From positions 124,001-188,000 of the forward strand of contig JAOWCC010000299.1 in NCBI GenBank assembly GCA_030867875.1: a stretch of DNA of 64,000 bases. Direction: 5' to 3'. The notes beneath the pieces were generated by a model that ran no database searches, had not been told where the DNA came from, and saw only the letters and a list, made by a program, of their open reading frames with translations. The position numbers were made by a program, and so were the translations under genes. The stretch comes from Actinernus sp. WN-2022 (taxonomy: Eukaryota; Cnidaria; Anthozoa; Actiniaria; Actinernidae). Positions 10,869 through 35,400 of the stretch are shown piece after piece. How positions within the stretch are numbered: position 1 is the stretch's first letter; each line of letters starts with the position of its first letter.

Positions 10869-10958
10869 CGGATTTACTTGACTACTTGTCTAGAGTTTCG
10901 AGATTATTAGTAATAAATTTTGAATTATCAAATATTCTACTTATTCGTATTATTAAGA

Positions 10959-12092: not shown

Positions 12093-12132
12093 TTATATCA
12101 CAGTTACTATATCAAAACATCGGAAGTATACT

Positions 12133-14418: not shown

Positions 14419-14440
14419 TGTAGCTTCGATATATCATAAC

Positions 14441-15743: not shown

Positions 15744-16748
15744 TGAAAAACAATCGAAAGATCCTCTCGATATGTTGATTAAGGGTGCTAAAAGAGCGGC
15801 AAAAGATAAAAAGTGGTTTGATGTTGAACCAATGAAACTTTGGCAGCACCAATTATGTTTCGCCGTTTGGTGTGCTACGGCAGGCTGCGGTGTATCATTC
15901 GATGACCATCTTTCAGATGATGCGCCAATCATCGACAATATTCGGAGCTTTTATCGATTTCATGTATACTATACGATCAGGCGAGTACTGTTTGAATTGG
16001 GAGTCCCACTCCCCAGAGAAAACATATTCGATAAGTTCAACAACGTTCCATGGAATTACGTCGTATATGACAAGATCAGAAGAGAGTTCGGTGCTTATGG
16101 AATCAACTTTGCCACACGTCGAAATGATATGAACGAGAAGCACTACAATTGGTTCGTTCCACAGAATGGGAAAGGATTGAGAAAGGCCGGGATAGTCCGA
16201 ATTAATGCATCAATAATGGTATATTTGTTTTGTGTCCTATCATCCCAGGCTTCAACCGGCTCACCAATCGTAGGATCGAAGTCCTCAGCCGCCCAAAATA
16301 AATTCGATACGACGTTTGAAAATGCCATCATAGAATCGGCTTCAGACACTCTAGCCCAATACCAAGAATCTATTAAGGATATTAGTTCTCGTCTAGATCT
16401 AGCAGTTGCGAAGGATTGTCTGTTAATGCCCAGCTATATGATTATCTTTAAGGGCGTTACGTACGTAAACAGCCTACGAACGGCAAATAAACCTGGTATC
16501 AGTTTAGGAATAAATGATGACATCAATCTTAACGAAAAATCTCCACCACCAGCCCCTATGGAAGGCTCGAAACCAAAGACACCTAAACATACGACTGATA
16601 CGACTGATACGACTGCTACGATTGATATACGACTGATACGACTGATACCTCTAAGCCACACAAAAGTGTATCACCAACGAATCACGACACCAATTTGGCA
16701 ATCGTGGGTATTGTTGCCGGCGTAGCCTCATGGATGATATTTCGTTAG
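15703..16748 (+). pseudogene. Polinton protein of about 340 aa, C-terminal anchor out of frame
   Basis: The ORF runs from ATG 15,703 to 16,725. The body is a mixed alpha/beta protein with several cysteines and tryptophans (CFAVWCATAGCG at about 52-63), not recognised. Near 16,590-16,640 the DNA is a simple repeat of GATACGACT encoding Thr-Asp repeats. After it, this frame gives a basic tail without obvious function. The next frame over gives a clear hydrophobic segment (NLAIVGIVAGVASWMIF) ending in a stop at 16,746-16,748. A slippage-type indel in the repeat has therefore probably cut off a C-terminal membrane anchor. Programmed slippage is the alternative reading. Confidence 0.55.
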
Positions 16749-17077
16749 CGCCGACGTTTCGACGATTTATATTGCTCTACTAAGAATATGACCACTGCTA
16801 CGATAAGTAACCACGCATTCTTGGCAAGGAAGGGAATAACTTGACTTGCTATCTTGAATATGTAACTCACAATAGCACTTATCGCGGCAGGTAGCATGTT
16901 AGCTATCTTTTTTCCAAGATCCTTCAAAGCCTCACCAACTCCATTAGCAATGGCGGCTAAGCCTTTTGTCAATATACCAACGACGGTACCAATTACGACA
17001 CCTGCGACAGTTAACACTCCAATCACTGTGAATCCGTGTTTCTTGAAGATGGCTTTTATGCGGTCTCGTAGCGACAT
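16745..17077 (-). CDS. Small hydrophobic membrane protein, 110 aa
   Basis: Intact. An N-terminal basic amphipathic stretch (RDRIKAIFKKHG) is followed by a glycine- and valine-rich span (17-38), an amphipathic helix (46-60), a second hydrophobic region (62-83) and a third span (87-101). It ends in a very basic tail (KSSKRRR). This layout fits a virion membrane protein or a membrane-lytic internal capsid protein, but I cannot assign a family. Its stop codon overlaps the end of the gene on the opposite strand by 4 bp, and its start lies inside the end of the upstream gene (17,056-17,726). Confidence 0.6.
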   Translation of the reverse strand: MSLRDRIKAIFKKHGFTVIGVLTVAGVVIGTVVGILTKGLAAIANGVGEALKDLGKKIANMLPAAISAIVSYIFKIASQVIPFLAKNAWLLIVAVVIFLVEQYKSSKRRR

Positions 17078-17726
17078 ACGATCTTTGATGCCACCTCATA
17101 TTCTGGAGTTCCCTTAGTTAATGAATCCATCTTTCTTATTTCCTCGGCCTTTTGTTTATCTTTTTCAGTGGCCATATCCTCTTTCATACTAATCTCCTTT
17201 TCCGCAGTAGGTCCAAGAGCGTTTTTAAGCGTTTTCGGTAATACATTGGGAGTGTCTACGGCGTCCGACAGTAAGTATGATCCAGCATTAATACGATTGA
17301 GTTTTATCACGACCCTATCACAGTCATCCAAACTAGCGGTGAACTTCGTTAGATCTGCTTTTGGGAACTTTATAGTGATTTGGTCCTGTGCATTTTCAGT
17401 CCGTCTTTCCAGTTTTCAAATGGCGTTTCCGTAAACGACGTTTCAGCAGTACTACTGCCTGCCGTAAACGGCGTTTCCACATCATCACCTTGATTGACTA
17501 ATTCTATATACTCAGTTGAGCTGGTTCCCCAGTTACTACGATTTTTCCACAACCTATCACGTATGCTTTTCGTCGTATTTTTGAATCTATGCTTAGCTCT
17601 ATTCCACCAATCCATTTCTGCCTCACCATCATCAGGTCTAATCTCCGCCCATTCTTCGGCAGTAAGATCATTCACATCGGCTCTACCTTCTTCAGATAGA
17701 GGTTCAAAGTCTACCGTTTTTTCCAT
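17056..17726 (-). pseudogene. Polinton acidic protein, one frameshift
   Basis: Two minus-strand frames, 17,370-17,726 and 17,056-17,331, appear to be one gene of about 220 codons broken by a single frameshift near 17,395. The start is ATG at 17,726. The N-terminal half is acidic and tryptophan-rich (LTAEEWAEIRPDDGEAEMDW, then a basic helix). There is a tandem FTxTPFE-like repeat region (about 90-110). The C-terminal half is a soluble domain ending in a lysine/glutamate-rich helix. There is no recognised domain. It faces the capsid gene across a 62-bp divergent spacer, which suggests a virion or scaffold protein. Confidence 0.55.
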
Positions 17727-17788
17727 ATTGAACACTGGATATGTGATATACTATTAGTATTGACTACATATTCAATTGTGGAACAAAC

Positions 17789-19096
17789 ATGATATCAACA
17801 AAGTTCCATCCTGACTATTCTCCTATAGAATGTAGGATATCAACAAAGCTCCATCCTGACTATTCTCCTAGAGAAGGTAGGTCTCTTAAAGCCAGCCGTA
17901 CGTTCCATCGTGTAACTTTCACTCCTTCATCAGCCAATCCAGGGGAAACTTTAATTGTTAATGTTCCTACGTTAGGTGAAAATAGACTTCTAGTACCTGG
18001 TAGTCTAGCCCTTAGTGCTAATATTATTCTATCCAATGGTCATGCTGATAACTATTTGGTGGCCAATGTTGGACGTTGCCTAGTCTCAAAGCGAGTCGTA
18101 TGGATGGGAACTACTAGATTAGAAGATTTAAGTCGACCCGATCTACTGCAGGCATATAGCGATCTATACCTATCTGACGTAGAACGAGAGAATCGCATAG
18201 AGCAGGGTATTCAATCTGCTAATGTGAACAAACTTCGTTCAAAGGCTAGCAACGCAGTTAAGTCTAATGCGGCTGATAATGCGACACTAGCGGCATATGG
18301 TAGCGTGTATAAGATACCTATTGATCATGAAGTTATCACAACCCATGGCGTCTTTTACCCACATGCGATTCGAGATAAGATGTCATTTCATTTAACACTG
18401 TCACCAGCCATAGATGTCATAGTCGGATCAGACAGTACGAAAGTAGGAACATATAAACTATCAAACATTGAACTAGAATACGAAGTCATCGAAAGTCTCG
18501 ATCTTGCGTCGCAGGCCAATAGTACCTACGTCAGCGGTAAAGCCTTTCTTTATAACCATTATGAGTACTTCAAAACCGTCTCAATCAATCTAGGAACCGA
18601 TACACTCGTATCTGAAAGCATAAACGTACTCCGTCTATCTCTCAATGGCATCCTTCTTCTATTTGTGGATCCTCATGTGGGAGGTACCAGAGATAGTGAG
18701 AAGTTCGTAAATCCAGGAATCACCAAGGTCGAGGTACACGTCAATGGCATTCCCAATGCTCTATATTCTTTTGGTATGCTACCAAAGGATTTATGGAAGT
18801 CCGCAAAGAATTGGTTTGGTGAGGGCAGTACTCTGCAATTGTCGTCCCGACAAGCAGTTACATCCATGACACATAAGAAGTTCTTTGAGAACAAGTTCGC
18901 CGTATTCATCGATTGTCGCACCTCGCAAACCAGTATAGTTCATGGAGATGGTCTAGCCCAACAAGATGCTGGAGCATCCATTCGCCTTAGGATTCATCGC
19001 AGTGGAGGCTCAGGTAATGTGAACATGCACATATTTGTGCTTTCTGATGCACAAGCAACTATTGAACAGGGAATGCTACAAAATGTTTATCACTAA
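17789..19096 (+). CDS. Putative Polinton major capsid protein (double jelly-roll type)
   Basis: 435 residues, intact. After a short N-terminal extension the protein has the typical start of Polinton/adintovirus hexon-like capsids: a strand with TPSSANPGETLIVNVPTLGE, then LVPGSLALSANI. Long beta-rich regions follow. The length (about 430-450 excluding extension) and the position directly upstream of the packaging ATPase gene match the conserved capsid-ATPase pair. The first 30 residues contain a tandem duplication (two copies of ISTK[F/L]HPDYSP, DNA at 17,792-17,875) that looks recent. If correct, trimers of this protein would form the icosahedral shell. There is no direct proof from sequence motifs alone. 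Confidence 0.7.
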   Translation: MISTKFHPDYSPIECRISTKLHPDYSPREGRSLKASRTFHRVTFTPSSANPGETLIVNVPTLGENRLLVPGSLALSANIILSNGHADNYLVANVGRCLVSKRVVWMGTTRLEDLSRPDLLQAYSDLYLSDVERENRIEQGIQSANVNKLRSKASNAVKSNAADNATLAAYGSVYKIPIDHEVITTHGVFYPHAIRDKMSFHLTLSPAIDVIVGSDSTKVGTYKLSNIELEYEVIESLDLASQANSTYVSGKAFLYNHYEYFKTVSINLGTDTLVSESINVLRLSLNGILLLFVDPHVGGTRDSEKFVNPGITKVEVHVNGIPNALYSFGMLPKDLWKSAKNWFGEGSTLQLSSRQAVTSMTHKKFFENKFAVFIDCRTSQTSIVHGDGLAQQDAGASIRLRIHRSGGSGNVNMHIFVLSDAQATIEQGMLQNVYH

Positions 19097-19121
19097 CGTA
19101 TTCGTTGACGTATTCGTTACC

Positions 19122-19761
19122 ATGGATACATTAACAGAACAAATTCCCTTTAACGCACTCATAATTGGCCCCACAAACTGTGGAAAGTTCATAGTTGATC
19201 ATAGTTGATCAATTGAGAGGTCCGTTTCGTTTTAAGTTTGAATATATCGTATTGATTTGTCCCACCTATGCTAACAATAAAACCTATAAAGGCGTTGGTA
19301 AGGGAGATCCTCGTTTCATTGTCCTAGCGCCTTCTCAGAACGATATTGATGCAACCCTGGGCGACTGTGCATGTTTTTTCGAAGGAACAAATACACTTAT
19401 TATCCTTGATGATTGTGCGGCAAGCAAGGATGTTAAGGGAAGGACCAATAAGATATCCGATTTAACCTTTTCTGCACGCCACATTGGTATTTCGATTTGG
19501 GCCTCATCACAAACACAAAAAAGTATATGCAAGAACTTTCGCGAGAATTGCGCAATCATTGTGGCATTTCGCATCGCAAGCGCACCGGGATTAAAGGATC
19601 TATTCGATGACTACGGCGCTAACATATCCTTGGATGACAAAAAGCGATTCATTTCAGAACTATATATGTTTCTGTTTGCGACATCCATTTTCCACCGTAT
19701 TGGAGATACCTTCACCTATGGTATGTCACAATACGTTGAAGTAAGATGGATAAAGATTTGA
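19122..19761 (+). pseudogene. FtsK/HerA-type genome-packaging ATPase, frameshifted by a 10-bp duplication
   Basis: The reading frame starts at ATG 19,122 with LIIGPTNCGK (Walker A; the residue after Lys is Phe rather than the usual Ser/Thr). It then meets a perfect tandem duplication of ATAGTTGATC (19,191-19,200 and 19,201-19,210) that throws it out of frame. The rest of the gene continues in the frame 19,195-19,761. There the Walker B motif NTLIILDDCA (about residues 64-73 of that frame) and the following SARHIGISIWASSQ sensor-like segment are intact. This is the A32-like family that pumps DNA into capsids in Polintons, adintoviruses and virophages. The 3' end overlaps the next gene by 16 nt. 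Confidence 0.85.
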
Positions 19762-20387
19762 ATGATGAATTAATGAACATACTAACTGAACCCTGCAAAA
19801 CAGATGTGGCAGGTCCTCCACCCAGGGCCAAATGCGGCTACCGCAGTAGAGTTACCTGCAAAGATTGCCATGAAGTACACTGCGCTACCACCGATGAAGA
19901 TCGTAGCATAACAATCAGCGACCATAGGGAAGCTCTTTCTATTCTAGCCGTGACTGGTACGACAAAAGAATATCTAGGGAAGGATCTTTCTATTGGGAAC
20001 ATTTCTAAGCTACCTGATAAAGACATAGAACGCCTATATCGTAGATATCAAGCCGTCTTAGCAAAGCAAATAAATAACTGCTTAGTGGATAGAGCACTAA
20101 GTCTAGTAACTCACGTAGTCGCATGTGCGGTGCCTATAGATTCTCAACAAGCACTGTTGAAAGATCTACGAAAAGACCGCTTAGTCCGAAACGAGATATC
20201 TGCCCTGGCTGGATCATTGTCCTACACAGCAGGTCCACTCGTAGCACTAACTAGTGCCTTTTGTCACATTGTTAGCCATTATATGTCCGCGGAACAGGAC
20301 TCCGAAGTTAGCGAAAATGAAGTGGATACCCCACAAAGCAATGAAGTACTTGAGGTACATTCAAATTTAAAAGAATCTTTAGCGTAA
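19746..20387 (+). CDS. Polinton hypothetical protein with Cys-rich N terminus, 213 aa
   Basis: Intact, start codon inside the 3' end of the ATPase gene. Residues 17-46 include five ordered Cys/His positions (C, then CGYRSRVTCKDCHEVHC), possibly a zinc-binding knuckle. The middle is helical and basic. The region 110-180 has hydrophobic helices (LVTHVVACAVP and AGPLVALTSAFCHIV), and the C terminus is acidic. I do not recognise the family. The overlap with the ATPase gene implies shared expression and perhaps a role in packaging or capsid assembly. Confidence 0.6.
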   Translation: MDKDLNDELMNILTEPCKTDVAGPPPRAKCGYRSRVTCKDCHEVHCATTDEDRSITISDHREALSILAVTGTTKEYLGKDLSIGNISKLPDKDIERLYRRYQAVLAKQINNCLVDRALSLVTHVVACAVPIDSQQALLKDLRKDRLVRNEISALAGSLSYTAGPLVALTSAFCHIVSHYMSAEQDSEVSENEVDTPQSNEVLEVHSNLKESLA

Positions 20388-20425
20388 TTAACGTATTGAA
20401 GTTACCTCAACTACTTCATAACAAG

Positions 20426-20770
20426 ATGGAAGTTGATCCTCCGAATGATCTCATCACGAAAGAACCCATAAAACCCCCACCAAATCCAAAACGAGTCGCC
20501 GCCGGCAAACTCATAGCACAAAGAAGGAAAGAAAATGCGACTACTCCTGTAGCAAGGCTACCAGATAGCCATAGCGATAAACCAAGTTTGATGTCGACTA
20601 ATACCACACTTGCTGTAATTGGGGTAAGCATAGCACTTGTGGGTTTGTACTATCAGTATAAGCAATACACACAAACGCAACGAGTTAACCCTCCATCCAC
20701 TGACGCTACCAAAGAAGCCACAAAAGAAATCCCCAAAGGTCGTAACCTAAAAATTCAAGGTATGATATAA
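20426..20770 (+). CDS. Single-pass membrane protein, 114 aa
   Basis: The first ATG is at 20,426. An upstream TTG extends the frame but is not a likely eukaryotic start. The N-terminal half is proline- and lysine-rich (PIKPPPNPKRVAAGKLIAQR). There is one clear membrane span, TLAVIGVSIALVGLYYQY (about 61-78), and a polar threonine- and lysine-rich tail. Function unknown. Small single-pass proteins are frequent in Polinton and virophage genomes. Confidence 0.55.
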   Translation: MEVDPPNDLITKEPIKPPPNPKRVAAGKLIAQRRKENATTPVARLPDSHSDKPSLMSTNTTLAVIGVSIALVGLYYQYKQYTQTQRVNPPSTDATKEATKEIPKGRNLKIQGMI

Positions 20771-20828
20771 CATTTGAAGCCACGCTACAGACATATATTA
20801 TCGGCGATGTAAATGTCATTCCGACAAG

Positions 20829-21047
20829 ATGGTTAACGAACTTATGAACACAATACAGGAAGCTACTATATTGACTGGACTTGCGGCAGGTATCGGTTGG
20901 ATCGGAAAAAAAGCAATCAAAGAGCCCTTGACTAACGATCCTTCATCTAGTGTTTTGAACTTCGCGAAGTGGATAGCGGTTCTATCTGGTAGCCTTGCAG
21001 CTAAGAAATACCTAAAGGACAAAGGGTATTGGAAGCCTGTTGAGTAA
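20829..21047 (+). CDS. Small hydrophobic protein, 72 aa
   Basis: Intact frame from ATG 20,829. It has a hydrophobic, glycine-rich segment (ILTGLAAGIGWIG, 14-26) and a second, weaker one (FAKWIAVLSGSLAA, 45-58), with a lysine-rich C terminus. The spacing to its neighbours (58 bp upstream, 31 bp downstream) fits the row of small genes here. No family is recognised. At this length the call depends mainly on context. Confidence 0.45.
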   Translation: MVNELMNTIQEATILTGLAAGIGWIGKKAIKEPLTNDPSSSVLNFAKWIAVLSGSLAAKKYLKDKGYWKPVE

Positions 21048-21078
21048 CAGGTTCGTTTCGAAGCCTCGTTTCGAAGCC

Positions 21079-21501
21079 ATGGCATCAATAATATTTATGG
21101 CAATTGCCTTCGCCGTAGCGAGTGCTGCTGCTAGTATTGGCGCCCATGAAATCGAAAAAGCGACTAGCGGGCCGAATGCGGCTGCCGCAGAGATGGTAAG
21201 ACATGATAAAGCTCAGGAGAAGGCAAATGCCGCTATGGCCGCCTATGAAAAAAATCGAGAAAAACGACTAGAAGCACTAGCCACCTGGAACCACTGGAAA
21301 GAAAACAATGTACACGTTGGACTTAAGGATAGAATCGATGCAATGCGAAAACTCCATATATATCACATATTGCAAATGAAACTGGAAAAGCCTAAACTCT
21401 CGGATTATTATCGACCATCTAATTCGAGGAAAACTGCCGAATTGGTGGCCTTAGGTGGTAGCGTATTCGCGACTGGATACGTTGCCACTCGATTCTTATA
21501 A
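21079..21501 (+). CDS. Membrane-anchored helical protein, 140 aa
   Basis: The first ATG is at 21,079 and begins with a hydrophobic alanine-rich segment (MASIIFMAIAFAVASAAASI), which could be a signal anchor. A charged helix rich in alanine, lysine and glutamate follows, likely coiled coil (residues 40-80). The C terminus has another short hydrophobic stretch (VALGGSVFATGYVATRFL). The upstream in-frame TTG at 21,040 is not needed. Function unknown. I infer a virion membrane component, as for the other small proteins of this row. Confidence 0.5.
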   Translation: MASIIFMAIAFAVASAAASIGAHEIEKATSGPNAAAAEMVRHDKAQEKANAAMAAYEKNREKRLEALATWNHWKENNVHVGLKDRIDAMRKLHIYHILQMKLEKPKLSDYYRPSNSRKTAELVALGGSVFATGYVATRFL

Positions 21502-21640
21502 GAATTACTAGGTAATTACTCGCTTACTAGGTAATTACTAGGTAATTACTCCGCATAAAATGCAACTACTAAGTAATTACTACTAATAAAATGCGACTAC
21601 TAAGTAGTAACTTTTCTGCTTATTGAAGATTAGAATGCAC
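21502..21640. repeat. Tandem ACTAGGTAATTACT repeats before the integrase gene
   Basis: Between the stop at 21,501 and the integrase start at 21,651, ACTAGGTAATTACT or close variants (ACTAAGTAATTACT, ACTAAGTAGTAACT) occur about five times, with AATAAAATGCGACTACTAAG between them. The core TAGGTAATTACT is partly palindromic. Such iterons could bind a regulator, or the integrase itself, and set the expression of the integrase gene. No binding protein is known from the sequence. Confidence 0.6.
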
Positions 21641-21650
21641 ATATATATCA

Positions 21651-22679
21651 ATGGATACTAAACTAAGTTTACGATACTATAGTACGGAGGGTTATTGGAA
21701 AGGACTAGCAGCTATTAAACATCTTGCCAATTCGACAAACATATCTGAAGATGTGACTCGGATGTGGCTAGAAAAACAAGCTATATGGCAGATCTATTTA
21801 CCACCACCCAAATACGTTCCACGACCTAAATTCGACGTATCTACACCAAATGAGGTACACCAAGCTGATTTGATATTTCTACCTCACGATCGACCTGGGC
21901 GTGGAAGAAAGCTATATAAGTACGCATTGACGATTGTGGATGTAGCATCCAGATACAAAGAAGCCGAACCATTAGCCACTAAAGAACCTAAAGAAGTTGC
22001 TGCGGCATTCGAACGAATATATAAGCGAAGTCCACTAACATGGCCAAAACTTTTACAAGTCGATCCAGGGCGTGAATTTATGGGTGCAATGTCTTCGCTA
22101 CTAGATAAACATGAAGTTTCTGTACGTCGTGGGCGTGTGGATATTCACCGGGATCAAGCAATCGTTGAACGATTCAACCGAACCCTATCGGAAAGGCTAT
22201 TTGGATACCAATATGCTCAAGAAATGGTGCTTGCTTCACAGGGAAAGGATGATAGATCTGTCGAATGGGTGGATCGTCTACCTGCGGTCGTAAAAGCTTT
22301 AAACAATGAAGCTACGCGTTTGACAGGAAAACAACCATCCATAGCAATTACCAAAGATGAAATCGAATCGAACCCATCAGAGCCCGCACATAATCGACCG
22401 ATTGGTCTCAAAGAGGAAAGACTTCCATTCGATGTCAGTGTTAGATATCTATACGCTCCTGGTGAGCTAGAAGGTGGACGAAGGCGTGCTACCGATCCTA
22501 TATGGAGTTTGAAAACATATAGCATTTCGCGTAGTATGGTTTCTTCGGGTCAGCCAGTTCTATATTATTTGTACGCCCCACAAGTTTCGAAGAAAACACC
22601 AACGCGTGGATTTGTGCGTGAAGAGATACAAGTCGTACCACTCGATACCGAACTACCTCCAAATGGGATCTTAAGCTAA
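21651..22679 (+). CDS. INT: Retroviral-type (rve) integrase of the Polinton
   Basis: 342 residues, intact. This DDE enzyme cuts and joins the element's ends to host DNA, giving the 6-bp target duplication. The catalytic triad is visible: Asp73 in VHQADLIFL, Asp138 in LLQVDPGREF and Glu173 in AIVERFNRTL, with about 35 residues between the last two. An N-terminal helical region precedes the core. After residue 260 there is a beta-rich C-terminal part (YSISRSMVSSGQPVLYYLYA, 282-301), reminiscent of the chromo/SH3-like tails of Polinton integrases. The 3' end overlaps the convergent polymerase gene by 9 bp. It is one of the few enzymatic genes still open here. Confidence 0.93.
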   Translation: MDTKLSLRYYSTEGYWKGLAAIKHLANSTNISEDVTRMWLEKQAIWQIYLPPPKYVPRPKFDVSTPNEVHQADLIFLPHDRPGRGRKLYKYALTIVDVASRYKEAEPLATKEPKEVAAAFERIYKRSPLTWPKLLQVDPGREFMGAMSSLLDKHEVSVRRGRVDIHRDQAIVERFNRTLSERLFGYQYAQEMVLASQGKDDRSVEWVDRLPAVVKALNNEATRLTGKQPSIAITKDEIESNPSEPAHNRPIGLKEERLPFDVSVRYLYAPGELEGGRRRATDPIWSLKTYSISRSMVSSGQPVLYYLYAPQVSKKTPTRGFVREEIQVVPLDTELPPNGILS

Positions 22680-25600
22680 GTCGGTGGGGCGACAAAGTCG
22701 CGTCTCGGGTTGGGGCAAACGGATATCTTTATGACCATGGGCTAATGTATCGATGCCATTTCCGGAAATCCAACGTTTTGTGTCCAGTGGCGAAAGTGAG
22801 ATTTTATTAACTCGCAGACCATAGATCTTATGCCCAATGCTTCGCAGCATATTCATTCCATGTCTGAAGGTCTTCCTATCGAAAAGAGACTCCTTATACT
22901 GCTCGTGTCGCATGTGCTTATTCACAACATACTTCCGTACTCCTTTAGCCTTGCGAATCTCCTTAGTGTCTGCGCATACAATCGAATACATCTTAGGTCG
23001 AAGTCCAACGTACTCTACGATGGCAACGCCTGCGCACTCATCCTTCATCTTTCCAAGAACCTTTTTATTGGTAGTGTCGTATAGTGGATGGTCCTTTGGG
23101 TAATCGCTCGTATCGTAGAGATCTGCATTCGAGGCCATGTCGTCGTAGACGTCTTCAGTCTGGATCTCAAGCAGTAGTGAATCTGTGTCTGTGTATAGCA
23201 GTTCGCATTGATTACCATATTGGAGCTTAAGTTAGTTGTAATAGAAATCATACATCAGGTGTTTAGATAGGTCTAGGATGCTCATACCAACGTAAACGGG
23301 ACGGTTAAGCATGAGCCTGCTTTTATGCATGTGTAGTGCTACGAGGCCATCATCAAAGATATTTGATCTAGCAAATGTTGGACTTGATATCAGCCGTCGA
23401 AGCTTGTCATCCTCTATCGCACGCACCAGCTTCACATCCACGCGCTTACGCAGATTCTCCATGGTCTTACCAAATACTGAGTTGTTCATCAGTTTGTAGA
23501 GATCTTTCTCGAAATTGCTTGTAGCCAGTTTACGAAGGTCGGTATTCATACGTATATATGGCTCCATCCAAGAACTTTGGTCGAATCTGAGTGCTCGGTG
23601 CACCTTTTTAAATTTCATACCAAGAGACAGATATAGCTGTAGATTCCTATAGTGCAGGACGTAGCGTTCTTTGTCAAATAAATTGGGCACAAGCTTTTCA
23701 ACTTCGATTGGAAACGCTCTTTCACCTAGTAGTCCACATTGGTACTCTGACATCCATTTTTTCTGGACTTTCATACGCTCTGGGGCAAGTGGATATGTGT
23801 TGTGAGTATTGTGCAGTTCTGTAGGATACTCAAGGTCTACCTCAAGGATATAACCTCTTTCCGCATCTTTCGCGATATCAAGGTCGATAGTCTGTAGCTT
23901 TGCTACGTCACTCGAATCCTCCAGTTGGTAGCGCTTGGCTCATAGCCCATCCGTATAGGTTGTTCGCATCCAGATACTGTATGTACGTAGTGGGCTTGGT
24001 TTCGTCGTACTCGGCCACATACGGATTGTTGGCCTTTGCATGGCGTCGACTGACCATAGAAATACCGCCTCGCATCCCTTTCTCGATGAATAGATGCATA
24101 TCGTAGTCGGTAAGCAACTCGAGCTCTACACCAGTCTTCTTTAGAAATGCATCCCACGATAGACCAGGACTCGTATAGTAGTGAGCCGGATCTAAGCCAT
24201 AATTTTGCATACATGTTTCTCGAAAGCCTTCGAACACATCTGCCAGTAAAAGTACATCAGTTCGAAGATATAGGTCGTGGTAGTCTCCCATAGTTTGACA
24301 GCCAAATGCTTCCCAAACCTCTGTGCGTGGGTATAGTGGTGGTAGCTCATCCTGAAACCTCTCCCAACTGTCCATATATTGCGTAGAAGAAAGCCGAGCT
24401 TGTGCTTATCTTGCTCATATCTGGCTGTGATTTGAAATCCTTCGGGGTTTTTAGCTGCTACTAGTCGATCAAGAGAGGATAGCAAAAACTAAACACTGTC
24501 TATGAATCGTAGTCTCCCTAGGGAGAAGGAAATGTACTTCTCCATGTTATTGGGTATGCAATTTATCTGCCCCTCTACTTTGGAAATAGCCTGCATTAAG
24601 AGATGAGAATCGTATCCCGGCAAATTATGGAAGACTACTGGTATTATGGTCTTCTTTGGGTCTATCCGCAGGAGTAGATTACAGGCATTGTGTGCTGCTC
24701 CACGATACTTTCCAGTGATATGGCAGTGATCGCGAACTGAATCCCCATTAAGAGTTTTCTGACAAATGTGGCAAATTGTCGCACTTCGGTGGACTATGCT
24801 GTCCTCTGGAGTCATGCATAGGGCTTTACGTCTAGATAGAGCCGCCTTGACTTTTTGTTCTTCTTGTTGTATTGCCTTCAGGAACATTTCCGTAGCATTG
24901 GGCCCTCTATAGACGACTGGAGTCTCCGTATGGCCATCACATCTCACCACAATGTAGCCGAACCCACAGGCCTCATGTAGTTGAGTTTTATGTGTGTTGC
25001 TGCGCAGCTCTGCTGCCGGCTCTGCTGCCGGATGCAGCTCTGGTCCTTCGATCTTGGTTGTCAATGCCTCGAAATCGCCGTAAATGATGTAGGGAACCTT
25101 TAGCAGTTTGTGCCAGTTCTTAAAGGATAGCTTGTTCTTACCCTCTTTAGGCATCTCAACTCTAACTGCTGTTTGTCCTATACCTTTAAATTCTGGAATG
25201 TGTTCTTCAAGGAGGTCTTCTCGGCAGTATCCGTGGAGACACCTCTCGCAGAAGTGTTGGCGGTGCTCGTGCTTGCTCTGATCGTGAAGAAGCCGATTCA
25301 AATCCTTAATCCAAGTATAGTGATACTTTCCGGATTTCTCTATTAACAGCAAGTTAATGCGTTTGGTGTCCCCACATTGCTTGCTAATCCTGTAGACAAC
25401 CACACATTTCTCCCAGCCGAAGACATTGATTGCAAGGTTGTTTTGTTTCTCAACTCTGCAAATCTGTGATATGGGCGTTGGTGCATCGATTTCTGTAAAG
25501 TCTAGGCCGTCGTCTATAGGATACTTAGATGGTCTTTGGGTATTAATCTCTACGGGAAAGAGTGCTGATCGTAGTGCCCATCGTAGGCAGTTATCATCCT

Positions 25601-26215
25601 TATTTTGAACATTAATCACAGCCCTCTTGTTTTGGACTTCTTTAGGAAGTGAAATGTATGAGCCTCCTCGCAGTGGTTGATATCGTGCGATGTCAAGCCA
25701 AAGCAGAACTACTCGGTCTACCACCCATCCTGAGCCTCTATGTATCCATTTCTCTAGATTTTCTTGGATCGCAGGAAAAGACTTGTCTAGCGCGGAATTG
25801 ATTTCGTGGGACTGCAATAAAGCCTCCTGATAATGACGAAATGTTGTGTCGATGAATTCTTTGCTACCATCAAGGTTGTACTTTATTAGATCTACTCTCA
25901 GGGCGAGCTGGAACTTCACCCCTTTTAGATCTAAAATCTCTTCCTCTAGCTTTTCGTGGATTATATGGCGTCTAAGAAGGCCATTGGGTCGGCACCAAAT
26001 TCGTGGCCCTCTGGAACATCCATCTGCCAACCTCGTAAAAAATTGCCAATGACCGATTTAGTGCGTTTGAATATTAGTGGCACATATCTTGTTGGAAGTA
26101 ATGGTCGTGGTAAAAGTCTTTCTTCCATTTCAGGGATCGGTTCATCAAGTATGCTTGGATTGCGCGCCTGTTCATATATATTTAGTACGTCTCTCTGATA
26201 ATTGTTGTATGCCAT
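22671..26215 (-). pseudogene. POLB: Protein-primed family B DNA polymerase (pPolB), multiply broken
   Basis: The gene reads leftwards from ATG 26,215 and covers about 1,180 codons. Domains in order: an N-terminal region; exonuclease motif I YGDFEAL; an inserted endonuclease-VII-like zinc motif (CHICQKTL, then RDHCHITGKYRGAAHNACN); Exo II VVFHNLPGYDSHL; Exo III YLRTDVLLLADVFE; polymerase motif A YLDANNLYG; motif B LMNNSVFGKTMEN; and motif C YTDTDS. Frameshifts lie near 25,990, 24,485, 24,378 and 23,905, and an in-frame stop TAA at 23,232-23,234 lies just before motif C. The motif residues themselves are conserved, so decay is recent. Polymerases of this family start synthesis from a terminal protein. 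Confidence 0.93.
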
Positions 26216-26243
26216 ATTTACTACGGGTATAATATTAGTATAT

Positions 26244-26549
26244 CTATTCTCTAATAGGTAGATTTTTAATTACAAGTTCAGCCAATACAACGTTTAAATC
26301 CGTTCTAGCCCTCCTACCTTTACGCAATAGGTTTATCTGTGCGGTTATATTACCACACGGGCGACACAGTCGTGTCTCTGCTTGAGTCCCAACTCCACAC
26401 GTACGACAGGGGTATGGCTCAAACGATCCTTCTCTGATCTGGTGTCGATGTTGCTTACAGCACTCGAATAAACAACTCTTACCACAAATAGTTGTCCTAC
26501 CAACTGTTAACCATCGGCACTGATTGTGTCCACGCATCTTGTGTGTCAT
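26244..26549 (-). CDS. Small Cys/His-rich protein at the right end of the Polinton, 101 aa
   Basis: Intact frame starting at ATG 26,549, immediately inside the right TIR. It has many Cys and His residues: CRW, then CGKSCLFECCKQHRHQ (22-37), CRTCG (49-53) and CRPCG (62-66). The last two form a likely zinc ribbon (CxxC-x9-CxxC). A basic stretch KGRRAR follows. A zinc-binding nucleic-acid protein or transcription regulator is plausible. The peptide ETRLCRP here also occurs at the polymerase C terminus (minus strand at about 22,690), with nearly identical DNA. A family name is not recognised. Confidence 0.55.
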   Translation of the reverse strand: MTHKMRGHNQCRWLTVGRTTICGKSCLFECCKQHRHQIREGSFEPYPCRTCGVGTQAETRLCRPCGNITAQINLLRKGRRARTDLNVVLAELVIKNLPIRE

Positions 26550-26750
26550 AATATGGTGGTATCAAATCTCTAATTGGGATTTATTATTGGTTGCATTAAA
26601 GGTAGTTAGTGGTGGTTCTTACTGGGGGAATAAAGGGGGCTTATATAAGGAACAATTTTCGACGATTTTTTTGTGGACTTAGGGAAATACGGTGGGGAAA
26701 AGAGGGCTTATATAAGGATGTGAATTAGGAACGGCACTGTGTATACTACT
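26543..26750. repeat. Right terminal inverted repeat of the Polinton
   Basis: 208 bp, the inverse of 10,571-10,868 but about one tandem unit shorter. It contains TATATAAG twice on the minus strand and ends GTGTATACTACT at 26,750, followed by CATGTA, the target duplication. The inner end includes the ATG of the Cys-rich gene, so promoter and start codon of that gene belong to the TIR. Confidence 0.9.
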
Positions 26751-29093: not shown

Positions 29094-30010
29094 GGTCATT
29101 CCACAGTATTTTGAAACCACACAACAGTATTTTAAAAGTATTTAAATGTTCTGAAATTAGTTAAAATGTTAAAGCTAAGAGTCTAAAGTTTACTTTGTGT
29201 GAGTTATTATGAAAATGTCCTGCAGCATTTATGCATAAATTATAAATTATTCTGCAAATGTGGTAAAAAGCTGTTGCAGAGAAGACAAATGCTTTTGTAA
29301 ACCCAAAAATTCCAAAATCGTTCATTGGACTTAAAGTTCTTATGATGTTCTATAAGGTCAAAATGTCTTTTCCGCAACGTTTTGATCCCCTAAGTTTTCA
29401 TTGCAAGAAGGTAAAAAGCCCTATAATGTTCAAGCTTGTGTAATATTTCCCCACACAAAAGATATCAAGATGCCCACAGGTTTGTATGAAATTCACATTT
29501 TTGTTTTTGTTGTGGAGAAGACATTTTTATTGCAGAGAAGACATCTATAATAGTAATACTTCAAAAAGCATTCTTCTATCTATCTAGATATAGCTTTTTC
29601 TACTTGTTTTCCAAATAAGTAAAGAATAGGCTTTCTAAAATAAATTTTGAGAATTGTATGACACCTCTATAGCATCTGGAGGCCTGGAGCTAGTAGTGAG
29701 TAGACTGTTGCATTGTGGGTATTTTACCTAGTCAGCGAATTTTGATGAACTCGTCTCGTCTACTATAACGAATCATTACCGCCTTAAACAGCTGGTAAAA
29801 TTTGCGACCAGAGGAGAGCGAACTTTAGATCTTGTTTTAACAAATCTCAAGGACTACTACGGCAAGCCAACCAAGTTAGCACCTTTCTGTCTGTCTGACC
29901 ATTGGCATTGTACGGTATCTCTTTTCCCTCAGTCACGAACAAAAGGCACTACAACAAAGGAGACAGTGTTGATTAGAGATATGCGGCCAAGTTCAAAGGA
30001 TGCCCTCGGG

Positions 30011-30300
30011 AGTAGTATAGGGCGCATGGAATTAGCCGTTTTTTTGCGGTGTTATGCTAATTTTTGCGGTGTTATGCTAATGTTTGCGGTATTATGCTAA
30101 TTTTTAAGGCGCTCATGAATAAAGTGTGGTGGTTTCTCATTATCTATTGTCTTAGACTCATGAATAAAATGCGGCGCGCTCATGAATAAAGTGTGGCGCT
30201 CTCATGAATAAAATGTGGCGCTCTCATGAATAAAATGTGGCGCTCTCATGAATAAAGTGTGGCGCTCTCATGAATAAAGTGTGGCGCTCTCATCATCGCA
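30011..30300. repeat. Left TIR of the satellite element, with subterminal tandem repeats
   Basis: Outer part: three GCGGTGTTATGCTAA units (30,035-30,102). Inner part: GCGCTCATGAATAAA, a unique spacer with TTCTCATTATCTATTGTC, then CTCATGAATAAAGTGTGGCG repeated about six times (30,170-30,295). The repeats are mirrored at 32,805-33,068. Arrays of this kind are typical protein-binding or packaging signals, though nothing here proves that. Confidence 0.9.
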
Positions 30301-30970
30301 CAGAATAAATGGACATATCTGATCACCAAGGGCTAATTTGCATACGAAAGTGATCAACCAAGCGCGCGGGTAATTCAAACATTAGATCAGATTTACAGAA
30401 GAATGGACCAAATTAGAGCGATGTATCCCTCATGTGGCCACTTTTTTCGGCACTCAAATTTAAAAAGTATTAGAATTGCCATCGGCAAAAGTGAGCTATG
30501 GAATCAAAGAAGCATGTTACAATTTATTACGGCGGTTAAAGCACGCTATGTAGTATCGGTTTTACGTCAAATATTGGCTAAATTTGACTAAATTTTGACT
30601 GAAGCCAAAGTTTGGGATGTTATTTCTCAGTCTGAAATAAAAAATGTTTAGAATTGCCAGCTGCAAATAGAAGATGTTTCTCTATATTCAGTAAAAACTT
30701 GAGAATCGTCTTTAAATTTGCGTCCAAAGTTGAATCGGTTTTGACTTTTTTCCGGTAATGAAAATAGTTCCTCATTGCTATTCAACAACAATGGTGAAGT
30801 CCGTACGCGCTGAGTGCTAAGCTCCGCCTCCTGTGGCTGCAATAAGTCCCAATGGACTTCATATGTACAATTGTCAGGTCAAATCAAGCGGCAAATTCAA
30901 ATTAGATGTGTGAATTTGGATGCGTTGGTATCCCAGTGAAGTTGGATCCGTAAACTCTTGCCGAACATTA

Positions 30971-31455
30971 GCGGGACGGCTCTTAAAACATTTTTATTAA
31001 CGGCGCTTGTGGTTTTAAAGTCAGTTGTAAAGTTGTAATAAAGACTAGTGAAAAGTCGTAATAAACATGCAGACAGACGGTGTTATCACTGTGAAATATA
31101 AAAGTAAAGTTTTGCCGAGCAACTAGCAGGACGGCTCTTGAAAAGTTTCTATTATTAAACGGCGCTTTTGGTTTTAAAGTCAGTTTTAACACAGACGACA
31201 GTTCTAGTGAAAGTCGTAATAAACATGCAGACAGACGGTGTTATCACTGTGTGAAATCAAAGTAAAGTTTTGCCGAGCAACTAGCAGGACGGCTCTTGAA
31301 AAGTTTTTATTATTAAACGGCGCTTTTGGTTTTAAAGTCAATTTTAACACAGACGACATGCAGTTCTAGTGAAAGTCGTAATAAACATGCAGACAGACGG
31401 TGTTATCACTGTGTGAAATCAAAGTAAAGTTTTGCCGAGCACAAGCAGGTCAACC
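30971..31455. repeat. Three tandem units of about 157 bp inside the satellite element
   Basis: Units begin near 30,971, 31,127 and 31,286 with GGACGGCTCTT and contain CGGCGCTT, GGTTTTAAAGTCA, GTCGTAATAAACATGCAGAC and GTTTTGCCGAGCA. The second and third are nearly identical and the first is more diverged. There is no ORF. They lie just downstream of the ATPase gene end. Confidence 0.85.
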
Positions 31456-31605
31456 AAGAGTTTTGAATTGAGCGCCGATTGTTTAACTTAGCGTTCCGTT
31501 AGCGTTCTTCCCGAAACTTATTCTTTCACCAAGAGTTTTGAATTGTGAGCCGATTGTTTACCTTAGCGTTCTGTTAGCGTTCTTCCCGAAACTTATTCTT
31601 AGATA
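31456..31605. repeat. Tandem duplication (about 75 bp) overlapping the end of the ATPase gene
   Basis: ACCAAGAGTTTTGAATTG followed by GCCGATTGTTTA and GCGTTCTTCCCGAAACTTA occurs twice, at 31,455 and 31,529. The stop codon and last codons of the ATPase gene (31,574 onward) fall in the second copy. The 3' end of the gene has therefore been duplicated downstream. Confidence 0.8.
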
Positions 31606-32374
31606 TTTCTGGTGGTTGTTGCTGTTCACCGGGTAAAACATTGGTCCTTAACCTACAGCCCTCGGGTGTATTTGGTTTTAAGTCGACAAACAAATAACCA
31701 TAAGGTCTCCTGACAGCCTTTTCGTACTTGTTGAGAAAATACTCCGTCTGCCTGGGATACATTTGCTTGGCCAGTGTTAAAATTTGTAGTTTGTCACGTG
31801 GATTCTTAAACAGCACTAAGTAATGACTGTTTAAACTGATGCTGCGATTGCCTTTACCCTGATGGAATAGGTTCTGTAAAATGTAGAGGATACTCAGGTT
31901 CCGGTGATGAGATCCTTTGGTAAACAGGTTGACAATTCTATTATCATTTCCCGTTTCAGTCATCTGGTCATCAATGACAATCAGGTTTCGTACATGTACA
32001 TCAAAATAGTGATCTTGCTCGATATCAGGGGGGATTCCTTTCACAAATTCGATATCAGGTACCGTACTAAGGAGTGCTGTATACACAGACTGCCACTGTG
32101 AATAGCACCAGACAATCCTCTGGGGTGGCCGGGAAATTGTTTGATGGGCTTGTTCGAGTAACTTCTGAATCCAGACCGTTTTACCACATCCTGTCATACC
32201 AGCAACCATACATGTGAAGGGATGTTGTAGTTGAAAAGAGTCACAAGAGGTTTCAGGCTCAGTTGATTTGGACTTAGAAAATCTGAAGGAATTGTGTTTG
32301 TTATCCATGTGTCGTTTAAGATTATCACTCCTTGAGAACTTTTCTCCGCACTCTGGGCAATGTCTAAAAACCAT
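31574..32374 (-). CDS. C2H2 zinc finger fused to an A32-like packaging ATPase
   Basis: 266 residues, intact, ATG at 32,374. Residues 6-27 form one classical C2H2 finger (CPECGEKFSRSDNLKRHMDNKH). A linker leads to a P-loop ATPase: Walker A GMTGCGKT (59-66), the strand RIVWCYSQW (86-94), Walker B LIVIDDQM (131-138), then TKGSHHRNLSILYILQNLF (152-170), which fits the sensor region of FtsK/HerA-type packaging ATPases. The C terminus (220-266) is basic. Such ATPases load DNA into preformed capsids, and the finger could select the element's own DNA. It is the only gene of the satellite and shows no breaks although its LINE host is decayed. Confidence 0.85.
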   Translation of the reverse strand: MVFRHCPECGEKFSRSDNLKRHMDNKHNSFRFSKSKSTEPETSCDSFQLQHPFTCMVAGMTGCGKTVWIQKLLEQAHQTISRPPQRIVWCYSQWQSVYTALLSTVPDIEFVKGIPPDIEQDHYFDVHVRNLIVIDDQMTETGNDNRIVNLFTKGSHHRNLSILYILQNLFHQGKGNRSISLNSHYLVLFKNPRDKLQILTLAKQMYPRQTEYFLNKYEKAVRRPYGYLFVDLKPNTPEGCRLRTNVLPGEQQQPPEISKNKFREER

Positions 32375-32409
32375 GTTTACCCTATAACAGATTTTAGATG
32401 AATGAGCCG

Positions 32410-32450
32410 AAACACTATATATCCTCCTCCTCCTCCTCCTCCTCCTCTTG
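32410..32450. repeat. (CCT)n microsatellite upstream of the ATPase gene
   Basis: TCCTCCTCCTCCTCCTCCTC from 32,422 to 32,447, in the 5' leader of the minus-strand ATPase gene (GAG/AGG repeats in the transcript). Its effect is unknown. Confidence 0.9.
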
Positions 32451-35400
32451 CATCACAAGAGTTTTCCTCCAAACAATAGGCTCTTCAGTTATCGTTAATC
32501 CCTAAGAACAATAGCAAAATTTATCTTATGAGTCACAGTGGATTTTGTATACAATTATCTTATGAGTTATTAACTGTAAAGGAAAATAATAAAGACAGTT
32601 TAGAGCCTATCACGAGTAGTTTGTTCTTACTATTTACGCTACAAAGGGGTTTAGATATTGCGAGGTATGTTTTATTTATTTTTTACTCAACTTCGAATGG
32701 ATTTGGGGGCGATCGGTTCTGGTTTTATAGCTGCTCCAAACAATAGGCTTTGCCCAAACATGCCCGAATAGATCGATGACCTCATCCAAAGGAACAATAG
32801 ATATTCATGAGAGCGCCACACTTTATTCATGAGAGCGCCACAATTTATTCATGAGAGCGCCACATTTTATTCATGAGAGCGCCACACTTTATTCATGAGC
32901 GCGCCGCATTTTATTCATGAGTCTAAGACAATAGATAATGAGAAACCACCACACTTTATTCATGAGCGCCTTAATAATTAGCATAACACCGCAAACATTA
33001 GCATAACACCGCAAAAATTAGCATAACACCGCAAAAAATACGGCTAATTCCATGCGCCCTATACTACTCTCGGGAGATAATAATTATTATAGTACAATTG
33101 ACTGGTCCGCCATAGATACTTTGAATAATGTACAAGATATCCCGAACTGGATCTTAAAGGAGTATTCGTATATATTGACCGTACCGGTGACATCAATTAT
33201 GAATTCCACCCTTAGAGAGGAAAAACTGCCCCTTTTATGGAAGAGTGCGAATATCACTCCGCTCCCGAAAGTAACACATGTTAAAGATATCACAAAAGAC
33301 CAAAGGCCTATTTCGTTAACACCAACTCTATCTAAAGTGGCTGAAGATTTTGTAGTGCAGGCTCACGTAAAACCGGCGGTGCTCAAGCACATTGCCTGTC
33401 AACCAGTCACGCCTTGATAAGCATGATACACCATTGGTCCAAAGCAACCGATGGGTCAGGGAATGATGTCAGAGTTTTTGCCTTAGATTACCGGAAAGCT
33501 TTTGACCTGATCGACCACACCCTATTAATTAATAAGCTCGCCAACTACGGTATAAACCCGCATATTCTGAACTGGATTTGCGATTTTCTATCGAATAGGC
33601 GCCAACGTGTTAAGCTTGCAAGTGATTGCTTCTCATAGTGGGAGTCAGTGCCGGCAGGGGTACCTCAGGGTACCAAATTAGGCCCCTGTCTATTCATGGT
33701 TATGATCAATGAACTGAATGTCCCATCCGCAAATGGTATTTTCAAATATGTAGACGATACCACGATTCACGAAGTAATAAAAAAGAACGAATGCAGCCAC
33801 GCACAGGAGATAATTAATCGTGTAGATCAGTGGTCTAAAGAGAACAGATTTGAATTTCATCCAAAGAAATGTAAAGAACTCAAAATCTCGTTCTCTAGAA
33901 CACCGAGAATTTATGACACCGTTACGGTAGGGGAGCAACTCTTGGTGAAGTGGACGAAATTAAAATTCTAGGTGTAACATTACAGAATAATCTTAAATGG
34001 AACTCTCATATTTCGGACACCATCAAAAAAGCGTCAAAGAGACTACACTTCCTAGTTCAGCTTAAGCGCGCTAATGTTTCTGCAGACGAACTTGTCCAAT
34101 TTTATACTGCCTGTATTCAATCTGTGTTGTTATATGCCAGCCCGGTATTTCATTATAGTCTCCCAGATTATCTTAGCTGTTCACTTGAACGAATACAAAA
34201 ACGAGCCCTACGCATTATATATGGATACGATCTTTCGTACTCTGACCAGCTTAACTTTTCTGGTCTATGTAGCCTTGCGGACCGTAGGTCACAACTCTGC
34301 CATAGTTCATTTCGGAGGATACTGTCGCATCCAGAGGGAAATCTATATGGCCTCCTACCGTTTAATGCAACGCGCCCAACTGTTACCTTAAGGAGTAGAA
34401 ATCCTATGTGTATATACCATCATGTAGAACAAATAGATATAGAAACACCTTTATAATATCGGGCGCAAATGATTACAATAACAATTGTAAGTAACTACAA
34501 TCGATGTATTTAGAAATTTTTAATTGTAATATAGCATTAGTTTAATTAGAGCAGTATATAGTATATCCTTCTTAAAACTTAGTTAACTTATCTAGAACCA
34601 TATTAATGTAAATCTCCGTAATTCAGTTTTTGCTGTAAGTGAGAAATATTTGTAATAAACGATCTATCTGAATCAATCTATCTGATCAGACATAATTTAA
34701 TGAGATAGCCATGTCAAGCAGCACTGAGAGGAGTAGAAAATATATATTTTAGCCAGCTTCTGAAAGTGTCTTTTAAAACATCAAATACCTGAGTTTTATT
34801 GTTATTTCACATTAGAAACTTTTTGTCTTCTAGCAACGTCTTCTCCACAACAGGCCCAAAACAAATCATTACCAGATATCAGTTAATTCGAAGAAGGAAA
34901 TTAAAAGTTTTTTTTCACTGAATGATAGAGTATTAAATGCTCTTTCACTTGAATCAAAGAGGCATTTGAGATGCCACATAAATTCAGAGGAATTTGAACT
35001 TGATTTTCTAGGGAAAAATGCAGGTGTTTTCTTAGTCTTCTATGCAACAGCCAAATATTTGATGCATGTGTCTGTCCATAAACGGCAAGAGTGAATACTC
35101 TCAGTGTTTTATGTAAACCTATTGGGTATCTACCTAACACAAGTGGAAAGGTTGTGTTATTCCTTTTATTATTTTTTCCGCACTCGATTATATGTCTCTG
35201 ATTTGTCTTCTCCGCAACAACGGATTACTGTGGAATGACCCATCATCGAATCCTCTTCTTATTCAAAAGGTAATACATTATACATCAGCAGCATTGAAAT
35301 TTCAACTGAAATTCAGAAAGCTCAAAAAAGGTTATTGATAAGATCAGGATGCTTTTAACGTGTGGCTTTTGCGTGAAAGTGTGGAAGATGTATAACTAAA

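What the first reader, a model, noticed from the sequence alone, without database searches (positions are those of the whole stretch)
30011..33068. A 3-kb satellite of a Polinton that carries its own packaging ATPase
Seen directly: long TIRs with subterminal repeats, a perfect 6-bp target duplication (CTCGGG), terminal AGTAGTATA identical to the first nine bases of the 16-kb Polinton in the same window, and a single intact gene for a C2H2-finger/packaging-ATPase fusion. Established: Polintons make 6-bp duplications through an rve integrase that acts on the element ends. Inference: this element is moved by such an integrase and may be packaged in the helper's capsids. A parasite that keeps the motor but not the shell would be unusual, since ordinary MITEs keep no gene.
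Basis: partly seen in the sequence, partly recalled or inferred. Interest (0 to 1): 0.92.

Follow-up and report, generated by a model that had tools for sequence, protein, structure and literature searches.

The report
Mosaic relic of Polinton satellite family
This 3-kb piece of mobile DNA in an animal genome (probably a coral's) is a broken mosaic, but its one gene comes from a small multi-copy family that has the ends of virus-like Polintons and keeps a DNA-packaging motor gene, with no shell gene seen.

Summary
The element at 30011-33068 is real: 98.5%-identical terminal repeats and a perfect CTCGGG duplication. Ten of 12 pairs of its TIR family read in this 1.39-Gb genome have exact 6-bp duplications. 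As a satellite with its own motor, this copy fails. It is the only such A+B locus found, a mosaic of Polinton-type ends, an unrelated repeat and the first 258 of 476-479 codons of a C2H2/packaging-ATPase gene. Only nine terminal bases match the window's 16-kb Polinton.

The ATPase source is the real find: 4.2-4.4-kb three-gene elements with Polinton-type TIRs and 6-bp duplications, carrying an acidic zinc-ribbon gene (ORF1), a 106-aa gene X, and ATPase with a C-terminal tail. ATPase and X clearly, tail and ORF1 only weakly, match one block (ATPase, X, p277) of adintovirus-like Polintons here. Seven of 11 ATPase copies read are intact; pN/pS is 0.35. Homologues occur in corals.

Best reading: a lineage inserted by helper integrase that keeps a packaging cassette to favour its own DNA in helper capsids. 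The packaging step is inferred, and a full-length carrier of these genes is not excluded.

The parts
30005..30010 (.). left copy of 6-bp target duplication CTCGGG
30011..30293 (+). left terminal repeat: AGTAGTATA terminus, three 20-bp repeats and 22-bp repeats; Polinton/fold-back type (97% to the C888 element)
30294..31458 (+). module A: unrelated interspersed repeat starting CATCGCACAG, with 158-bp tandem units; sharp left edge next to different flanks in 4 of 4 other copies read
31453..31600 (+). two copies of a 75-bp minisatellite that is longer at several module-A loci
31574..32374 (-). ORF P0001, 266 aa: C2H2 finger (aa 6-27), Walker A GMTGCGKT and Walker-B-like LIVIDD of an A32-type ATPase; about 258 codons homologous to the family, last ~8 residues run into the minisatellite; C-terminal ~220 residues missing
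32422..32447 (+). TCC microsatellite at the junction between the ATPase 5' region and the right subterminal region; genes X and ORF1 of the parent family are absent here
32448..33068 (-). right subterminal region and terminal repeat; 90-95% over the (near-)whole length to C813 Polinton and elements L040, L042; pieces 74-92% to the 4.2-4.4-kb family ends
33069..33074 (.). right copy of target duplication CTCGGG
10571..26750 (.). 16-kb Polinton of another lineage (context): rve integrase ORF 21651-22679, polymerase region split over several ORFs, A32-type ATPase piece 19195-19761; shares nine terminal bases with the 3-kb element; 5-bp CATGT duplication

Best explanation
The 3-kb element is a defective mosaic, the only one of its kind found: Polinton-type ends, a fragment of an unrelated repeat, and the N-terminal half of an ATPase gene taken from a 4.2-4.4-kb three-gene element family. 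That family is a non-autonomous lineage. Each of three complete members read has Polinton-type TIRs, a 6-bp target duplication, an outward-reading acidic zinc-ribbon gene (ORF1), a 106-aa gene X, and a C2H2-ATPase with a C-terminal tail. ATPase and X clearly, tail and ORF1 weakly, match one block (ATPase, X, p277) of adintovirus-like Polintons that are present in many similar copies. Shown: anatomy, ATPase and X homology, target duplications, mostly open ATPase ORFs with pN/pS below 1, and protein homologues in corals. Inferred: a helper integrase inserts the element, helper polymerase copies it, and the satellite's own ATPase (perhaps with the C2H2 finger reading the TIR repeats) favours packaging of satellite DNA into helper capsids.
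For: Mosaic: a DNA search of the middle gives 13 module-A and 27 module-B matches besides the window; 0 of 13 A matches have a listed B within 20 kb. The window's left TIR matches the C888 element at 97% and the 4-kb family at 82-86% in its longest pieces (shorter repeat pieces reach 94-97%), while module B matches the family at 97.8-98.8%. Family: C235:24233564-24237975 (4412 bp, TSD CGCTAA), C1312 (L068, 4.4 kb, CACGAA) and C1380:39440455-39444658 (ACCGTG plus one extra base) share one gene order. 11 of 27 B matches have ORF1 within 2 kb although both lists stop at 40 scored. 8 inverted terminal pairs: six of 3.5-4.5 kb, two of 18.4 kb. Origin: ATPase 51% (190 aa) and X 37-43% identity to the Polinton block. 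Selection: pN/pS 0.35, 7 of 11 ORFs intact. Corals: 96 of the 120 best ATPase homologues have the tail; 459 ORF1 homologues. Helpers: 40 scored ATPase-X-p277 matches at 93-100%, 23 of 40 with a listed chromo-integrase within 8 kb.
Against: No packaging, expression or excision was observed. A32 matches of this genome's own copies are weak. The tail link to p277 is weak (E 0.004, 0.02). The ORF1 link is marginal: the profile hits the C540 p277 (E 2e-5) but not the near-identical C942 p277 in the same ORF set at E<=10; ORF1's zinc-ribbon end also matches pieces in fold-back elements (L047 1.6e-4, L052 0.001). Helper copies read are partly broken (C942 ATPase frameshift and X stop; C540 X in two frames). 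Two 18.4-kb elements carry satellite-type ends and were not read, so a full-length parent is not excluded. The protein search of the genome did not complete. Of three complete copies, C1380 has a stop in X and C1312 a frameshifted ORF1. In the listed rows no named species has both ATPase and ORF1. Singletons alone suggest weaker constraint (about 0.5).
Confidence: 0.62

Rival explanations
1. Ordinary non-autonomous debris: both the 3-kb element and the 4.2-4.4-kb family are internal-deletion or recombination derivatives of a full-length Polinton that itself carries the rearranged genes; the ORFs are open only because the parent was under selection.
For: Plain derivatives are common here: at least L039 and L042-L045 of the 14 short elements fetched match the C813 Polinton's end region in inverted (fold-back) layout, in the part that was shown. 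Two 18.4-kb elements have satellite-type ends.
Against: The three complete gene-bearing copies read share one layout and similar size; the tailed ATPase and ORF1 have many homologues elsewhere, corals where named; none of the 27 listed B or 41 listed ORF1 matches lies inside the two 18.4-kb pairs (lists truncated at 40 scored).
Confidence: 0.3
2. One reading: this 3-kb copy is itself a mobile satellite that keeps a working motor and is moved by the window's Polinton.
For: Perfect TSD and near-identical TIRs show that the unit, or the element it derives from, integrated.
Against: It is the only listed locus with both A and B; the ATPase lacks its C-terminal ~220 residues; its private changes are 1 synonymous and 3 non-synonymous (few); the window Polinton's TIR differs after nine bases.
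Confidence: 0.05
3. The retained ATPase/X/ORF1 act not in packaging but as a regulator or interference factor: the finger protein binds shared TIRs and suppresses the helper or competes for its replication.
For: C2H2 finger plus basic C-terminal tail; ORF1 acidic with zinc-ribbon-like cysteines.
Against: Walker A and a Walker-B-like motif are present in 116 and 113 of 120 homologues, so ATP use is probably needed; ATPase and X come from one Polinton block.
Confidence: 0.2

Closest known systems
Polinton/Maverick elements (autonomous)
   Same: TIRs ending AGTAGTAT and 6-bp target duplications in the relatives read here (the 6-bp rule for Polintons is recalled); a packaging ATPase of the A32 group is described for Polintons in PMC4028283 (passages)
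   Different: 3-4.4 kb instead of 15-20 kb; no polymerase, integrase or capsid ORF seen; ATPase has a tail that weakly matches a neighbour gene of the Polintons
Adintoviruses (chromodomain-integrase Polintons; a Stylophora coral example is mentioned in PMC11071308, passages; definition in PMC11071296, passages)
   Same: The block ATPase-X-p277 of the C540/C942 elements is the apparent source of at least the ATPase and X; C540 has an rve integrase with chromodomain
   Different: The satellite has only that block, reorganised, under Polinton ends
Non-autonomous Polinton derivatives and MITEs (Repbase entries recalled; not read here)
   Same: Share ends with a longer element and lack the integrase
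   Different: MITEs keep no gene (PMC3517528, abstract start seen in a listing); here genes are kept, with pN/pS below 1 and relatives in other genomes
Phage satellites such as PICIs that redirect helper packaging (PMC6739421, passages)
   Same: Proposed logic: small element with its own packaging-specificity factor plus helper capsids
   Different: The PICIs in that paper use an adaptor on the helper's small terminase; here the element carries a relative of the motor itself; no hijack shown

Membership tests
Autonomous Polinton/Maverick | pPolB, rve integrase, capsid genes in a 15-20-kb element | tested here: not met
   one ORF of 120 aa or more wholly inside the 3-kb element; three genes in the complete 4.2-4.4-kb copies read
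Polinton-type mobile element (any autonomy) | inverted ends AGTAGTAT... with 6-bp target duplication | tested here: met
   12 of 12 left and 11 of 12 right ends; 9 of 12 exact 6-bp TSDs as cut, 1 after edge adjustment, 2 with one mismatch; TSDs of three 4-kb copies, one with an extra base; two of the three (C235, C1312) end AGTAGTGG rather than AGTAGTAT
MITE | no coding capacity | tested here: not met
   ATPase ORF here; ORF1, X and ATPase in the parent family
Virus/transposon satellite | depends on a helper for integrase, polymerase and capsid | tested here: inconclusive
   such ORFs not seen in the copies read; longer elements with related ends and integrase are present; dependence itself not testable
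Virus/transposon satellite | is packaged in helper particles | not testable with these tools
   needs particle DNA
A32/FtsK-type packaging ATPase | Walker A and B with A32-family profile match | tested here: met
   Pox_A32 in 22 of 24 members at E<=0.01, best 6.8e-7, FtsK in 6; window copy alone 8e-4 and the C235 copy 0.097, both below cut-off
Adintovirus (helper C540) | rve integrase with C-terminal chromodomain | tested here: met
   rve 3.9e-12, Chromo 4.5e-12; C942's integrase showed rve only
Adintovirus (helper C540) | PolB with OTU domain and recognisable hexon | tested here: inconclusive
   DNA_pol_B_2 1.4e-6; DJR-like only 0.02; OTU not tested

The most novel reading that the evidence does not exclude
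Corals host an old lineage of 4-kb satellites of adintovirus-like Polintons that carry no shell, polymerase or integrase but keep and evolve their own packaging motor cassette (C2H2-ATPase with tail, X, ORF1), taking helper capsids by swapping in a motor that recognises satellite ends: an animal counterpart of packaging-hijacking phage islands.
Probability: 0.4. Interest if true: 0.88.

Novelty: new variant of a known kind. Interest (0 to 1): 0.7.

Why it matters
Viral particles of Mavericks have not been observed (abstract start of PMC8097293, seen in the listing). A satellite lineage that keeps a packaging cassette under selection would be independent genetic evidence that these elements package DNA in capsids in animals, and would give a testable system for packaging specificity and satellite-helper conflict inside animal genomes.

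Tried and rejected
Rejected: helper status of the window's 16-kb Polinton (nine shared bases; its ATPase is another lineage, 65% to C813's, and the family ATPase finds nothing there at E<=0.05). Rejected: simple insertion of module A into a 4-kb element (the flanks of A do not join in any relative read). Rejected: simple internal deletion of C813, C942 or C540, because the middle of the window element has no DNA match in them beyond the subterminal region. Led nowhere: viral contig scan with the ATPase alignment, no confirmed relative; PHROGs, nothing useful; ORF1 fold, mean pLDDT 52, not used; homologue search with half of ORF1, none; the ATPase fold had not finished at its last poll. PDB searches gave zinc-finger or chance matches. 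Literature: searches (open-licence PMC only) listed no paper on such a coral satellite; this rests on listings (titles, starts of abstracts) and passages of four papers. One search was for phage islands only. Kapitonov and Jurka 2006 is not held.

Limits: DNA searches of the genome score only 40 candidates (of 2101, 662, 268, 109, 473, 3350), so co-occurrence counts are lower bounds and absences are weak. The 11 ATPase copies come from the top of one such list, not at random. pN/pS is an average over 55 non-independent pairs; singletons give 12 synonymous and 24 non-synonymous over 11 copies against a site ratio of 3.9; pairs with the window copy range from 0.23 to 1.45.
Full report
What was claimed.

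The observation. The ends are inverted repeats of 268 bp at 98.5% identity, built of 20-bp and 22-bp tandem repeats. CTCGGG flanks both sides. The ORF at 31574-32374 (-) encodes 266 residues with a C2H2 finger (1.2e-5) and a P-loop; A32 and IVa2 matches of this single copy are below Pfam's cut-offs, but 22 of 24 aligned family members match Pox_A32 (best 6.8e-7) and 6 match FtsK. The 16-kb Polinton (10571-26750) has the same first nine bases and then a different TIR. The nonamer occurs 25,434 times in the genome on both strands, so alone it links nothing.

The TIR family. The window lies in a 1.39-Gb genome. A search with the left 300 bases scored 40 of 2101 candidates and gave 44 matches. Twelve inverted pairs, the window's included, were read at both ends: all left ends begin AGTAGTAT and 11 of 12 right ends match it; 9 have identical 6-bp flanks as cut, C635 also does once its shifted match edge is allowed for, and C942 and C812a have one mismatch. 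C942, C812a and C812b share flanks and are probably one insertion. C540, checked later, has ATTACG on both sides. Sizes run from 1.2 to 19.9 kb. Longer relatives with these ends include C813 (19.9 kb; rve integrase 6.3e-10 and a 1225-aa PolB-type ORF, 3.3e-11; its capsid genes were not recognised by Pfam), C942 (19.2 kb; rve 5.1e-12, and what looks like a LINE insertion) and C540 (14.7 kb; rve 3.9e-12 with chromodomain 4.5e-12, PolB 1.4e-6, weak adenoviral-protease, DJR-like and minor-capsid matches). At least five short elements (L039, L042-L045) are fold-back derivatives of the C813 end, in the part of the output that was shown.

The window element is a mosaic. Its middle (30294-32447) was searched in the genome: 40 of 662 candidates were scored and the window was the only locus matched end to end. 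Thirteen other matches are to module A (30294-31458, several with a 75-bp minisatellite array) and 27 to module B (31599-32447, the ATPase); 0 of the 13 A matches lie within 20 kb of a listed B, ORF1 or window-type TIR match. Module A starts sharply at CATCGCACAG next to four different flanks in four copies, so it is an independent repeat that I did not classify further. The left TIR of the window element matches the C888 element at 97% and C635 at 94-96%; against the 4-kb family its longest pieces are 82-86%, with short pieces inside the 22-bp repeats at 93-97%. The right 621 bases match C635 at 95%, C235 (L042) at 92% and C813 at 90% over the (near-)whole length, and the 4-kb family in pieces at 74-92%. 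Module B matches the 4-kb family at 97.8-98.8%. Three sources are therefore joined: Polinton-type ends, repeat A and the front half of a family ATPase. One junction lies at a TCC microsatellite (32422-32447); the truncated copy L069 has a similar junction. The ORF follows the family for 258 codons and then reads the minisatellite; intact family ORFs have 476-479 codons. Its private changes are 1 synonymous and 3 non-synonymous, too few to conclude from.

The parent family. Module B belongs to a small element read complete at three loci: C235:24233564-24237975 (4412 bp, duplication CGCTAA), C1312 (L068, 4.4 kb, CACGAA) and C1380:39440455-39444658 (4.2 kb, ACCGTG with one extra A on the left). 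C1380 ends AGTAGTAT; the other two end AGTAGTGG. Layout: TIR with subterminal region, ORF1 reading outward, gene X, ATPase reading towards the other TIR, subterminal region, TIR. ORF1 is 286 aa in C235, acidic, with C-terminal zinc-ribbon-like cysteines; X is 106 aa. The C235 copy has all three ORFs open and TIRs that round to 100% identity; the C1380 copy has a stop in X and the C1312 copy a frameshift in ORF1. A fourth B locus read, C540 (L069), is truncated. Copy counts are lower bounds: 42 ORF1 matches (41 used) from 40 scored of 268 candidates; 11 of 27 B matches have ORF1 within 2 kb. A search with the C235 end gave, among 40 scored of 3350 candidates, eight inverted pairs: six of 3.5-4.5 kb, three of which contain a listed ORF1 match, and two of 18.4 kb with none.

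Where its genes come from. In C540 and C942 the order is ATPase, X, p277. The family ATPase is 51% identical to the C540 ATPase over 190 aa and 44-49% to C942's in two pieces; X is 37% (C942) and 39-43% in two pieces (C540). These two links are firm. The ATPase tail matches p277 residues 68-112 weakly (E 0.004 and 0.02). A profile of ORF1 and ten homologues has the C540 p277 (residues 120-236, E 2e-5) as its only hit at E<=10 among 617 ORFs, but does not report the near-identical C942 p277 in the same set, and ORF1's zinc-ribbon end also weakly matches pieces in fold-back elements; so the ORF1 link is marginal. If it holds, all three family genes derive from one contiguous Polinton block. The copies of the block that I read are partly broken (frameshift in C942's ATPase, stop in its X, C540's X in two frames). 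The block is nevertheless abundant: 40 scored matches (109 candidates) are 93-100% identical, 23 of 40 have a listed chromodomain integrase within 8 kb, and the 40 scored integrases (473 candidates) are 97-100% identical.

Selection and distribution. Of 11 family copies taken from the top of the match list, 7 have full-length ORFs; pN/pS is 0.35 for the part shared with the window copy and 0.61 for the tail (55 non-independent pairs); singletons alone give about 0.5. P0001 has 3478 homologues and ORF1 459 in a large protein collection; among the 120 rows listed for each, every row that names an organism names a coral (Oculina patagonica for the ATPase; Porites lobata and P. evermanni for ORF1), but no named species has both. 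Of the 120 best ATPase homologues 96 carry the tail, 67 of 67 among those of 400 aa or more; 116 keep Walker A, 113 a Walker-B-like motif and 59 the C2H2 pattern (some entries lack the N terminus). At least four pairs of listed ATPase and ORF1 entries report the same longest-contig length (compared by eye), which suggests shared contigs. The host is thus probably a coral or near relative (inference); whether the coral genes sit in 4-kb elements was not testable.

Mechanism. Shown: Polinton-type ends and target duplications, no integrase, polymerase or capsid ORF seen in the copies read, a retained motor gene under constraint, and longer elements with related ends and integrases. Inferred: an integrase of the helpers inserts the element; the family ATPase acts at the capsid in place of the helper's, and its C2H2 finger or tail gives preference to satellite DNA. 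Packaging ATPases and capsid proteins of Polintons are argued from sequence in PMC4028283 (passages). Phage islands that re-aim helper packaging by an adaptor are described in PMC6739421 (passages); I use this only as an analogy. About 0.9 for the mosaic reading, 0.75 for a distinct non-autonomous family, 0.4 for packaging hijack.

Verdict. The listed element is a one-off relic as far as the search reached, and by itself of modest interest. The lead it gave is better than the claim: a multi-copy family of Polinton-ended elements, with relatives of its genes in corals, that keep a motor cassette and show no shell gene. No such family appeared in the searches, which cover open-licence papers only and were read as listings and passages.

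Noticed in passing
short elements L039, L042-L045 (also L046, L052 from the rows shown): Fold-back (snap-back) elements: two inverted copies of one Polinton end, with 6-bp duplications for the five checked (L039, L042-L045); they resemble defective genomes made during end-primed replication.
   Followed up: partly
window 12133-13005; L061 5541-6254: F-box-like/ankyrin-type ORF in the window's Polinton and a related ORF beside the C1380 satellite (resemblance by eye only).
   Followed up: no
window 22671-26030: Polymerase region of the 16-kb Polinton is split over several ORFs in different frames, so that copy looks decayed, although its integrase ORF (342 aa) is open.
   Followed up: no
window 3763-5177: Large inverted repeat, arms about 527 bp at 97% identity, another candidate recent hairpin-like insertion.
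   Followed up: no
window 51268-57311: Tandem array with a ~648-bp period, each unit holding a 213-bp inverted segment.
   Followed up: no
G000:C1380:51854244-51872609 and G000:C903:158801-177198: 18.4-kb elements with the satellite-type terminal repeats (93% to the C235 ends): candidates for helper or full-length parent; not read.
   Followed up: partly
L054 1861-5397 (C942): LINE-like endonuclease and reverse transcriptase ORFs inside the 19.2-kb Polinton, probably a nested retrotransposon.
   Followed up: no
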